A DNA stretch of 64,000 nucleotides from Bacillota bacterium (GCA_021768085.1 JAETOJ010000012.1:1-64000), one strand, 5' to 3'; positions 13,605-17,194 are shown, counted from the stretch's first letter. The notes: generated by a model from the sequence alone, not told the origin. A program made the numbers and translations.

Positions 13605-14156
13605 ATGCCCAATTATGACATCATCCCTCTGGCCCTTGACCTGCTGGAGTACACCATCCAGCGGGTCAAGGCCAAGGAGGCCGAATACCGGCAGGTCAAG
13701 GGCTACGTCATGGAAAACTGCCAGCTTGTGGAGCGGGTGCTTTACGAAAAGGTCAAGGATGACGGCAAGCCCCATTTCCCCAAATCCCAGACGTTCCACC
13801 TGTGCGCCCGGCTGGAGGACTGTGCCGCTGACATCCTGGAAAAGTGCATCTCCGCCGATGGCCGTTTCTTTGAAACGGAGTATGAGGAGCGGCTGCGGGA
13901 CCTGGACGTTGTGGTGGTCAAGTGTGACACCATGCTCCAGTATATCAACCTCAGCTTTAAGAAAGGGTACATTTCCGGGGACCAATGCCACTACTGGGCG
14001 GAGATGGTCCGCCCGGTCAAGCAAAAGGCCTTTAACTGGCGGAGGAATGACGGCACCCGTGCCGCCGCACTTCGGGAGGCCAAGGCGGCCCAGGAGCTTG
14101 CCCAGATGGCGCAAATGGCCCAGCAGATTGCGGAGGCCATGCAGCGGAGCCCCTAA
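13605..14156 (+). CDS. avd: Avd-like DGR accessory protein (predicted helical bundle)
   Basis: Helical 183 aa ORF immediately upstream of the TR; segment LQYINLSFKKGYISGDQCHYWAEMV resembles Avd/23S-IVP family four-helix bundles. Confidence 0.65.
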   Translation: MPNYDIIPLALDLLEYTIQRVKAKEAEYRQVKGYVMENCQLVERVLYEKVKDDGKPHFPKSQTFHLCARLEDCAADILEKCISADGRFFETEYEERLRDLDVVVVKCDTMLQYINLSFKKGYISGDQCHYWAEMVRPVKQKAFNWRRNDGTRAAALREAKAAQELAQMAQMAQQIAEAMQRSP

Positions 14157-14211
14157 AGCGGATATACCAGCCAAAGGCTGTTATATTTGGGTGTGACCTA
14201 TATTTTGCGTT

Positions 14212-14311
14212 TTCCCCGAACACGAACAACACCAACAACGCCTGGAACTTGAACTCCGATGGCAACCTCAACAACAACAACTGCTCCAACACCAACGGGT
14301 CCCGCCCCGCT
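14212..14311 (+). repeat. DGR template repeat (TR)
   Basis: 100-bp ungapped match to 16029-16128; differences only at TR adenines; 14 AAC codons in register. Confidence 0.97.
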
Positions 14312-14488
14312 CTGATGGTCAAGGCCGGACTGAGTAGGCCCAAAGCCGAAAACAGCGCCATCCATCACATCAAAGGAGGTCACATCCAGCCTTGAGTTTT
14401 TCAAGGCAAACACATTGCGCCGATGCCGCCCGCCCGGCATTGAACGGGAGGGGGCTGCTGGTCCTGTCACCCGGCACCTAAACGGCGC

Positions 14489-15559
14489 ATGATGAGAGGA
14501 TGGCCAGCCGTACAAAGACAGGAGGCCACCCGCTTGAGATTTTCCGATATTTGCACCTTTGCGGTGCTCTACGCCGCATATCTTGCCGCCCGGAGGGGCA
14601 AGCGCTCCAGAGCTGCCACGGCCCACTACGAGGCCCACCTGCTGGAGCGCATCATCAACCTGGTCTATATCCTCCGCACGAAAATATATAGGCCGGGCCG
14701 TTTCCGTGTGTTCTACGTTTTCGAGCCCAAGAAAAGGCTGGTGCAGGCCCCGGCGTTTGTGGACAAAGTGGTCCAGCACGCCATAGTGGACAATCTGCTC
14801 TATGACCGCATCACGCACAGCTTTATCCTGGATAACTACGCATCCCAAAAGGGCAAGGGCCTCCACTTCGGCCTGGACCGCCTCAAGGGCTTTTTCACGG
14901 AATACTGGAACAAATACCGCACGGCGGAGGGCTGGGTCCTCAAGTGTGATGTGCGCAAATTCTTTGCAAGTATAGACCATGACAGGCTCAAGGAAAAGCT
15001 GCAAAAGCTGGACCTTGAGCCTGTTGTTTATGACCTGCTCTGTACTTACATCGACTGCTCAGACGGCTTGCCCCTGGGCTATCAGACCAGCCAGCTCTTT
15101 GCCCTGCTATTCCTGGACGATTTTGACCACTTCGTCAAAGAACGGCTCCACATCCGCTGGTATGGCCGGTATATGGATGACTTTTTCCTCATCCACCCGG
15201 ACAAGGAATATTTGCAATTTTGCCTCCGGGAAATCAAGGCCTACATGGCCAGCCTGGGGCTGGAGCTCAATGAGAAAACCCAGATTTTCCCCTTGCGCAA
15301 CGGGATTGACTTTTTGGGCTTTCACACCTACCTCACGGACAGCGGCAAGGTCATCCGCAAGCTGCGGCACAGCAGCGTCAAGCGGATGCGGTCCAAGCTC
15401 CGCCGGTGGGAGCGGGACTACCCCACGGGGCAGGTCACCCGTGAGGAAATCCTGCAATCTTGGCAGGCGTGGGATGCCCACGCCGCTCACGGCAACACCT
15501 GGCTCCTGCGCCAGCAAGTGCGGGACCGTGTGCAAAACATTCTAAAGGAGGTCATCTAA
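14489..15559 (+). CDS. DGR reverse transcriptase (start may be TTG 14534 after CAGGAGG)
   Basis: RT motifs: KCDVRKFFASIDH, GLPLGYQTSQLFALLFLDDFDH (GxxxSQ), RWYGRYMDDFFLIH (YMDD), NGIDFLGFHTY. Confidence 0.97.
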   Translation: MMRGWPAVQRQEATRLRFSDICTFAVLYAAYLAARRGKRSRAATAHYEAHLLERIINLVYILRTKIYRPGRFRVFYVFEPKKRLVQAPAFVDKVVQHAIVDNLLYDRITHSFILDNYASQKGKGLHFGLDRLKGFFTEYWNKYRTAEGWVLKCDVRKFFASIDHDRLKEKLQKLDLEPVVYDLLCTYIDCSDGLPLGYQTSQLFALLFLDDFDHFVKERLHIRWYGRYMDDFFLIHPDKEYLQFCLREIKAYMASLGLELNEKTQIFPLRNGIDFLGFHTYLTDSGKVIRKLRHSSVKRMRSKLRRWERDYPTGQVTREEILQSWQAWDAHAAHGNTWLLRQQVRDRVQNILKEVI

Positions 15560-17194
15560 TGGCAACTGTCACCCTTGGCAGCAAGGCAGAGGGCTCCATC
15601 ATCAAGCTCAAGGAAAACGGCGTGCTGGTGGAGTTTTACATTGCCAAGCAGAACTATGAAAGCGGGCTGAACGGAGCCGGGCGGGTGCTGGTGGTCCGCA
15701 AGGACTGTTATGACCAGCGCCAGTGGCACAGCTCCAACATCAACGCCTACGCCAGCAGCGCCATTGACACCTGGCTCAACGGCACCTACAAGAACCTGCT
15801 GGACGCCAACATCCGCACGGCGATGGGCACCACCAAAATCTACTACACTCCCGGCAACGGGAACAACAGCAAGACCACCTTGCAGCGGTCCGTGTTCCTG
15901 CTGTCCGCCACGGAGCTGGGCCAGTCCCACACCTACATGAACGCTGAGGGCACGGCGCTGTCCAGCACGGTCCTCAATCTGCTGAAAATCGCAAAGCTGA
16001 ATGGCTCCGCATATCCTCAGTGGACCCGTTCCCCGCGCACGGGCAGCACCGACGGCGCCTGGTACTTGTACTCCGATGGCGGCCTCGGCAACCACTACTG
16101 CTCCAGCACCGACGGGTCCCGCCCCGCTTTCACTCTCCCCTCCTCCCTCTATGTCAGCGATGACGGCTCTGTGTCCGTCAACACCGCCCCCGGCACCCCC
16201 TCCAGTATCAGCTATCCCACCAGCATCAACGGCGGCACGGACATCACCGTGAGCTGGGGAGCGTCCACGGACGCTGAGGGCAACCTTGCGGGCTATGTCG
16301 TGGAGCGGAGCACCAACGGCGGCACCACCTGGGCCCAGGTCTACCAGGGCAGCGCCCGGAGCACCACCAACAACGTGGCCTTTGGCACCGCCTCCGTCAT
16401 GTTCCGGGTCAAGGTCTATGACACAGAGGGCCTTAACTCCGGCTGGAAAACCGGCAGCAATGTCACGGTGGTCAACAACCGGGCCCCCTCCGCCCCCGGC
16501 TCCATCACGGTGCCCGCCGCCGTCCGGGGCGGGGCCACCCTGCCCATCTCCTGGACCCGTGCCACGGACAGCGATGACAACCTCAGCGGCTATGAGCTGG
16601 AGCGGAGCGTCAACGGCGGCGCATGGTCCCAGGTCTACAAGGGCTCCGCCCTGACCTTTACGGACACCATCACCGCCGGGTGGAATACGGTGGCCTACCG
16701 TGTCCGGGCCTATGACACGCTGAACGCCACCAGCGCCTATGTCACCAGCGACACCCGCACGGTGGACAATAACGCCTATCCCGTCATCACCAGTGACACG
16801 GCCTCCGGCACGGACCTGGGCACCAAAAATGAGGGCTTTGCCCTGACCTACAAGGTGACCGATGCGGACGGGGACACCGTGACGGTCAAGGAGTATCTGG
16901 ACAACGTGCTCCAGCGGTCCTATACGGCCACCCTGGGCCAGTCCAACACGTTCCAGGCCGTCACCGCCGCCAACTATCAGAAAATCCTCAACGGGGCCCA
17001 CACCCTCAAGGTGGTGGCCAATGACGGCAAGGCGGACAGCGGACGCCACGGCGGACATCAAGAGCGGAGCCAACCATGTCTTTGAGAACAAGACCGCCGC
17101 AAATGGCTTTGCGTTCAACTTCAAGCTGGACGTGAGCCGGGGGGGCAGTGACACCGGCGGCTATATTTCCAGCATCGGAGGTGCCTTTGAATGA
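15559..17194 (+). CDS. DGR variable protein: N-terminal variable (DUF6273/CLec-like) domain followed by FN3-like domains; reading frame broken (stop 17085; shifted frame ends 17194)
   Basis: ATG overlaps RT stop (TAATG) with AAAGGAGG RBS; contains VR; two FN3-like repeats (GGTDITVSWGASTDAEGNLAGYVVERS / GGATLPISWTRATDSDDNLSGYELERS). Confidence 0.9.
16029..16128 (+). repeat. DGR variable repeat (VR), residues ~158-190 of the target protein
   Basis: Aligns to TR over 100 bp; ends in invariant A-free GGGTCCCGCCCCGCT (IMH-like). Confidence 0.97.

What the first reader, a model, noticed from the sequence alone, without database searches (positions are those of the whole stretch)
13605..17194. Diversity-generating retroelement in a contractile-tailed prophage
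Seen directly: TR 14212-14311 and VR 16029-16128 align without gaps over 100 bp. 18 positions differ and every one is an adenine in the TR (18/32 A changed, 0/68 non-A). All 14 AAC codons of the TR are in register with the VR reading frame and 13 are altered, to Arg, Gly, Ser, Asp, Tyr and His codons. The A-free end GGGTCCCGCCCCGCT is invariant, as expected for an IMH. An RT with YMDD and GxxxSQ motifs lies between them. This is the hallmark of DGR adenine-directed mutagenic retrohoming (BPP-1 type).
Basis: partly seen in the sequence, partly recalled or inferred. Interest (0 to 1): 0.95.

Follow-up and report, generated by a model that had tools for sequence, protein, structure and literature searches.

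The report
Self-mutating gut prophage cassette, two targets
A virus integrated in a gut bacterium carries a genuine and recently active diversity-generating retroelement, which copies a fixed template into its adhesin gene while randomising only the adenines; this is a known kind of system, but here it also rewrites a second, distant gene and its template RNA folds into a structure conserved far beyond this virus.

Summary
TR 14212-14311 and VR 16029-16128 align over 100 bp with 18 differences, all at TR adenines (p=1.5e-11). The cassette is Avd (13605-14156), TR, RT (14489-15559) and a DUF6273-FN3 'tentaclin' target (15559-17194). Copies with the same TR on other contigs carry different VRs, again changed almost only at adenines, so diversification is recent. 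The RT groups with BPP-1 and other TR/VR-verified DGR RTs. It is a new member of a known kind (FP_Brigit, FP_Toutatis, nd4). Beyond the finding: (1) the same TR has a second target on another contig (G000:C47:122433-122496, 9/9 changes at adenines; 45/45 over four copies), in a small protein of the phage early region; FP_Brigit gp06 and FP_Toutatis gp24 are alike. (2) The TR is enclosed by a covarying 12-bp RNA helix; a helix of at least 10 bp at that spot occurs in 49 of 73 non-redundant DGRs against 1-8 of 73 in shifted controls. (3) In this family A->C almost never occurs before C (3/555, against 57/380 in other DGRs). (4) The BPP-1 type hairpin after the VR is absent. The genome holds two further DGRs. 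Small deletions truncate the tentaclin and a baseplate gene here.

The parts
13605..14156 (+). avd, accessory variability determinant (183 aa, helical bundle with an extra beta hairpin at residues 27-51)
   Evidence: phrog_3206 'Avd protein of DGR' 4.3e-22; NF033474 E=1e-6, below its cut-off; AlphaFold pLDDT 85; Foldseek: S23-family bundles and BPP-1 Avd 4dwl_C, TMt 0.86, E about 1
14162..14186 (+). 5' RNA hairpin just after the avd stop
   Evidence: covarying stems 1-2 in a 20-sequence alignment; also in the single-sequence fold
14188..14199 (+). 5' arm of the TR-enclosing RNA helix (TGGGTGTGACCT)
   Evidence: pairs with 14377-14388; 12 pairs, 100% of cells paired, 7 pairs with changes on both sides
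14212..14311 (+). template repeat TR, 32 adenines, 14 in-frame AAC
14297..14311 (+). A-free 3' end of TR (IMH*-like)
   Evidence: identical in TR, VR1 and VR2
14377..14388 (+). 3' arm of the TR-enclosing RNA helix (AGGTCACATCCA)
14389..14407 (+). spacer hairpin GCCTTG/CAAGGC
   Evidence: 5 of 6 pairs with compensatory changes
14416..14489 (+). distal spacer stem-loop reaching the RT start
   Evidence: helices 10-13 covary
14489..15559 (+). DGR reverse transcriptase (356 aa), LGYQTSQ and YMDD
   Evidence: RVT_1 5.6e-19; 8ub7_A 2.4e-30; tree
15559..17085 (+). target gene 1, tentaclin: DUF6273 (C-lectin type) then FN3/Ig-like domains; reading frame cut by a 181-bp deletion at 17041
   Evidence: PF19789 1.8e-25; phrog_10993; FN3 tandem in PDB search; alignment with intact relatives
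16029..16128 (+). variable repeat VR1, target residues 158-190 (C-terminal end of DUF6273)
17042..17194 (+). displaced C-terminal part of target gene 1 (anchor Ig-like domain remnant), in another frame
   Evidence: phrog_10993 positions 507-556; intact in L073, L074, L075, L040

Best explanation
This is a functional-type diversity-generating retroelement of a contractile-tailed temperate phage. Step 1 (inferred): the avd-TR-RT region is transcribed, and a helix of the TR's 5' flank with the spacer 66 nt past the TR, plus flanking hairpins, folds the RNA around the TR and presents it to an RT-Avd complex. Step 2 (inferred from BPP-1; products seen here): the RT copies the TR from the spacer side and misreads only template adenines. 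Step 3 (products seen): the cDNA replaces the VR in the target gene, anchored at the shared A-free end, so non-A positions follow the TR and A positions vary. Two genes are rewritten from one TR: the tentaclin next to the cassette (a virion adhesin or receptor-binding protein, by homology) and a small DUF6273-like protein of the early region (role unknown). Result: phages that differ in about 14 codons of a likely binding surface without risk of stop codons at those codons, since they are AAC in the template.
For: Adenine-only TR/VR differences, p=1.5e-11. Four other copies with the identical TR have four different VRs: 17, 12, 22 and 22 changes at A, 0, 0, 0 and 1 elsewhere. Related TRs and their own VRs share non-A substitutions (up to 14 between loci, 0-1 within a locus in all but two loci, L092 and L147, where the alignment is shifted by an indel), as expected if VR is repeatedly overwritten from TR. 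VR2: 45/45 changes at adenines in four contigs whose flanks are 99% identical; one 46-kb contig holds TR, VR1 and VR2. RT phylogeny and motifs, PDB match to BPP-1 bRT, Avd. Covarying TR-enclosing RNA: 120 double-changed cells against 37 in shuffles, 0/500. The Flintibacter muris DSM 110149 contig (coverage 379) is 100% identical to this phage outside the stretches missing here and ends exactly at the last base before the first VR adenine, as a mixed VR population would cause.
Against: No reads, expression or retrohoming assay were available, so activity is inferred from products. In this genome the tentaclin lacks 181 bp and is frame-shifted, and a baseplate gene lacks 217 bp, so this copy may be defective, or the assembly is at fault. 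The hairpin after the VR, needed in BPP-1 (PMC3240598), is absent. The contig-end argument rests on few contigs; others end elsewhere. Binding function of either target is homology only.
Confidence: 0.96

Rival explanations
1. A relic: the cassette diversified the gene in the past but is now dead in this lineage.
For: Three deletions in the window relative to near-identical copies, two of them frame-shifting; no hairpin after VR.
Against: avd, RT, TR, VR and RNA are intact; near-identical copies carry different VRs over the same TR, so change is more recent than the small divergence of the flanks.
Confidence: 0.12
2. VR differences arise by ordinary gene conversion or duplication plus positive selection, not by mutagenic reverse transcription.
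For: Target sites are likely surface residues of a binding domain, where selection is expected.
Against: Selection cannot confine 18/18, then 45/45, differences to positions that are A in a separate non-coding copy; synonymous non-A sites do not vary.
Confidence: 0.01
3. The RT belongs to a retron, group II intron or anti-phage DRT system and sits here by chance.
For: Weak profile matches to DRT and group II models.
Against: NCBIfam matches are far below the curated cut-offs; SQ instead of QG motif; DGR clade with 100/99 support; BPP-1 bRT is the best solved match.
Confidence: 0.01

Closest known systems
FP_Brigit / FP_Toutatis DGRs (Faecalibacterium myophages; PMC5883640, PMC11792537)
   Same: Same gene order (tail fibre, Avd, TR, RT, DUF6273/Hoc-like target, lysis), 68-69% DNA identity over 25-45% of the cassette; a second VR in an early gene is found here in both.
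   Different: Different phage genus and host group; different TR sequence; the second targets in Brigit (gp06) and Toutatis (gp24) are annotated only as hypothetical / DUF6273.
Tentaclin DGRs of phages nd4 and nd12 (PMC10743442)
   Same: Target 1 = N-terminal DUF6273 C-lectin then Ig/FN3 domains with the VR in the 5' part; target 2 = smaller C-lectin protein with a shorter VR; one TR for both.
   Different: Low identity; the authors propose target 2 as a receptor-binding protein, while here it lies in the early/replication region and not in the tail module.
Bordetella phage BPP-1 DGR
   Same: Avd, TR, RT, adenine mutagenesis, A-free 3' end; a short AGGGCAGG/TCTGTCCT pairing at the same distances (11 nt before, 62 nt after the TR).
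   Different: There the target (mtd) lies upstream with the VR at the gene's 3' end, followed by an 8-bp GAAA hairpin; here the target is downstream, the VR internal, no hairpin, two targets; opposite A->C context preference to bRT in E. coli (PMC12875486).

Membership tests
Diversity-generating retroelement | TR/VR pair differing at TR adenines only | tested here: met
   18/18 at A, p=1.5e-11
Diversity-generating retroelement | RT of the DGR clade with (I/L/V)GxxxSQ motif | tested here: met
   LGYQTSQ, YMDD; tree of 45 RTs, SQ clade 100/99; 8ub7_A 2.4e-30
Diversity-generating retroelement | Avd or other accessory protein | tested here: met
   phrog_3206 4.3e-22; fold like 4dwl; NCBIfam model below its cut-off
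Diversity-generating retroelement | VR in the coding frame of a C-lectin-type target | tested here: met
   VR at the end of DUF6273; the C-lectin fold of DUF6273 is from PMC10743442, not separated out in our fold search, which FN3 domains dominate
Diversity-generating retroelement | VR varies between copies while TR is constant | tested here: met
   five different VRs over one TR
Diversity-generating retroelement | Mutagenic retrohoming dependent on RT | not testable with these tools
   needs an assay
BPP-1-like DGR target site | GC-rich stem of 7-10 bp with 4-nt loop shortly 3' of VR | tested here: not met
   0/39 in loci with the target downstream of the RT, 17/45 in DGRs with upstream VR, found in BPP-1; fold z=-0.84
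Tentaclin | N-terminal DUF6273 C-lectin domain followed by 1-4 Ig/FN3 domains | tested here: met
   PF19789 then titin-like FN3 tandem
Tentaclin | C-terminal anchor Ig domain | tested here: inconclusive
   present in relatives, cut by a 181-bp deletion in this window

The most novel reading that the evidence does not exclude
Two general features of DGRs are exposed here: a TR-enclosing RNA helix shared by most DGRs irrespective of target and RT lineage (BPP-1 included, in short form), acting as the frame that sets the limits of the copied template; and, in the tentaclin phages, routine diversification of a second, early-region and apparently cytoplasmic protein from the same TR, so that hypervariation serves something inside the infected or lysogenic cell and not only virion attachment.
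Probability: 0.35. Interest if true: 0.72.

Novelty: new member of a known kind. Interest (0 to 1): 0.5.

Why it matters
The cassette itself adds one more well-supported member to a large known class. What makes it useful is the set of tests it opens. Near-identical copies, including one in the cultured strain Flintibacter muris DSM 110149, make it possible to watch two targets being rewritten from one template. The TR-enclosing helix gives a structural handle for finding DGR RNAs and for testing how the copied segment is limited. The family-specific lack of A->C changes before C suggests that DGR reverse transcriptases differ in error spectrum. The second target in the early region questions the view that phage DGRs only tune receptor-binding proteins.

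Tried and rejected
Rfam search of the window: no match, so the structured RNA is not a listed family. PADLOC, NCBIfam and Pfam RT hits to DRT, retron and group II models: weak, NCBIfam ones far below cut-offs, rejected. Hairpin/cruciform after the VR: not found. A full 100-bp scan of other loci of the genome with up to 14 non-A mismatches missed VR2, because only 64 bp are shared; a DNA search of the TR region found it. The fold search of the target against the PDB returned FN3 proteins only, so it does not test the C-lectin fold. The primary papers on the BPP-1 DGR RNA are not in the library, so whether the helix has been described before could not be settled. Counts of cluster members were considered as evidence of hypervariation of the second target (1238 and 238 in its two closest clusters, against 203 and 51 for its neighbour and 257 for Avd); suggestive only, since other Avd clusters are also large.

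Full report
Observation. Over 100 gapless bases, TR 14212-14311 and VR 16029-16128 differ at 18 positions, all at the 32 adenines of the TR; the chance of that for 18 random positions is 1.5e-11. Thirteen of the 14 AAC codons are changed, in frame, none to a stop. The shared 3' end GGGTCCCGCCCCGCT has no adenine. Immediately outside the repeats the two sequences are unrelated.

Surroundings. The window starts inside a contractile-tailed prophage: scaffold and major head protein (38-2221), tail sheath (4174-5304), tube (5336-5812), tape measure (6526-8868), LysM and YqbQ-like baseplate proteins, sheath initiator, baseplate J (11240-12457), a Gp48-like gene, a tail-collar fibre (12865-13602), then avd, TR, RT and the target, then a CBM protein, lysis-region genes and two HTH proteins (to about 21.3 kb), an IS30-like transposase, and DNA of higher GC. 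The RT gene stop and the target start overlap (TAATG at 15557-15561).

Family of the parts. Avd matches the phage Avd family (4.3e-22), and its model resembles S23-type four-helix bundles, BPP-1 Avd among them. The RT matches the BPP-1 RT structure at 2.4e-30, against 3e-8 for the best group II RT. In a tree of 45 RTs it lies in a group of 33, nearly all with the SQ motif, 29 of which have a TR/VR pair detected here or annotated (BPP-1), separated from 12 others by a branch with 100/99 support. The target has an N-terminal DUF6273 domain holding the VR, then titin-like FN3 domains. This is the architecture named tentaclin, whose DUF6273 part is a C-lectin fold with a variable hairpin (PMC10743442).

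Recent activity. Two scans brought in loci with the same RT. Seven have an identical TR (L039, L040, L073-L077). In the four that extend through the VR, it differs from the TR at 17, 12, 22 and 22 adenines and at 0, 0, 0 and 1 other positions, and all differ from each other and from the window. More distant members have TRs that differ by up to 14 non-A positions from this one, yet nearly all of their own VRs carry the same non-A letters: the VR is kept in step with its TR, which is what overwriting predicts. The contig of the cultured strain Flintibacter muris DSM 110149 is 100% identical over its 7 kb apart from the stretch missing here, and stops at TTCCCCG, the last base before the first adenine of the VR, at coverage 379. 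A mixed VR population in that culture is the simplest reason; this is an inference.

A second target. A DNA search of the TR region in the same genome found 64 bp at G000:C47:122433-122496 with nine differences, nine at TR adenines, ending in the same 15 bases and in the same reading frame, inside a 196-aa ORF (C47:122011-122601). Three viral contigs with 99% identical flanks have 11, 13 and 12 differences there, all at adenines: 45/45 in total. A 46-kb viral contig (L080 and L168) holds a related TR, its VR1 and, 7 kb on, its VR2. The gene is related to the DUF6273 part of the tentaclin (27% identity; hhalign probability 98%). It overlaps the start of a transglycosylase gene with an N-terminal membrane segment and is followed by a DUF2800/PD-(D/E)XK exonuclease. 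Host genes (RNase Y, ApbE) end about 1.3 kb before it, so C47 ends in the left arm of a prophage, most likely this one, since the contig of the window starts within it (inference). The homologues in FP_Brigit (gp06, between HTH regulators and exonuclease/RecT) and FP_Toutatis (gp24) also hold a VR of their own TR: 60 bp with 9 and 12 changes at A and none elsewhere. In nd4 target 2 sits beside DNA polymerase and replication genes. Two-target DGRs are known (PMC10743442, PMC11792537). That the second target lies in the early region, without an evident signal peptide (judged by eye from the sequence), is the point worth following; its function is unknown.

The RNA. An alignment of 20 related TR regions gives a consensus structure in which a 12-bp helix joins the TR's 5' flank (14188-14199) to the spacer (14377-14388), so that it encloses the TR, with a 5' hairpin and two spacer stem-loops. 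The helix is paired in all cells, with seven pairs changed on both sides. The whole structure has 120 double-changed cells against 37 expected, 0/500 shuffles. The single-sequence fold finds it too. The same test on 73 non-redundant DGRs, using 40 bases up to the TR and a stretch 30-85 bases past it, finds a helix of at least 10 bp in 49, against 1-8 when either side is shifted and 9% when arms of different loci are crossed. The arms differ in sequence but often keep a pattern like AGGGT...ATCCT. BPP-1 has a shorter one, AGGGCAGG/TCTGTCCT, at the same distances. The BPP-1 template RNA is known to need flanking RNA, and its spacer folds to recruit bRT-Avd (PMC12875486); the helix is probably part of that architecture. 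Whether its wide conservation is already published could not be checked.

Error spectrum. In this family, adenines followed by C become G or T but almost never C: 3/555, against 57/380 in DGRs with the target upstream (p about 3e-20), while adenines followed by A do become C (47/451). TCC (Ser) is never seen among 393 AAC codons although AGC (Ser) is seen 76 times, which points to the enzyme and not to selection on the residue. In E. coli, BPP-1 bRT has its highest misincorporation leading to C exactly in this context (PMC12875486). These are VRs after selection, so the point remains an inference.

Differences from BPP-1. The target lies downstream of the RT, the VR is internal, and no 4-nt-loop stem of 6 bp or more occurs within 60 bases of the VR in any of 39 loci with this layout, whereas the same test finds the one in BPP-1 and 17 of 45 in DGRs with upstream targets.

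State of this copy. Relative to near-identical copies the window lacks 60 bp at 8829, 217 bp at 12661 (Gp48-like gene) and 181 bp at 17041 (tentaclin C-terminus), with no flanking repeats; C47 lacks 102 bp in the same way. Intact copies exist. Four such losses in otherwise near-identical sequence look like assembly faults, but true decay is not excluded.

Verdict. A real DGR with evidence of recent activity, a new member of a known kind. The second target in the early region, the widely shared TR-enclosing helix and the context-dependent error bias go beyond the original finding.

Noticed in passing
G000:C47:122011-122601 (L161:7012-7602), VR2 at C47:122433-122496: Second target of the window's TR: small DUF6273-like protein of the phage early region, 9/9 differences at TR adenines; overlaps a membrane-anchored transglycosylase gene.
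   Followed up: yes
window 14188-14199 and 14377-14388: Covarying 12-bp RNA helix enclosing the TR; a comparable helix of at least 10 bp at this place in 49 of 73 non-redundant DGRs. Not in Rfam.
   Followed up: partly
TR/VR pairs of the tentaclin family (window, L040-L102, L146, L148): A->C is nearly absent at adenines followed by C (3/555) but common in other DGRs (57/380).
   Followed up: partly
G000:C33 about 127.1-129 kb (L153) and G000:C75 about 49-51 kb (L003): Two further DGRs in the same genome, each with its own RT and adenine-biased TR/VR pair.
   Followed up: partly
window 8829, 12661, 17041; G000:C47 about 120782: Deletions of 60, 217, 181 and 102 bp relative to otherwise near-identical copies, without flanking repeats; two break reading frames. 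Assembly fault or prophage decay.
   Followed up: partly
L039 position 7172 (Flintibacter muris DSM 110149): Contig at coverage 379 ends exactly at the base before the first VR adenine, as if the culture held many VR alleles.
   Followed up: no
FP_Brigit gp06 (L171:2974-3585) and FP_Toutatis gp24 (L172:2980-3627): Second VRs of these phages' DGRs, in early-region genes annotated as hypothetical or DUF6273.
   Followed up: yes
G000:C93:57098-58499 (L160): DUF6273 protein with a Big_2 Ig-like domain beside a weak RT match, near a contig end; possibly a fourth element.
   Followed up: no
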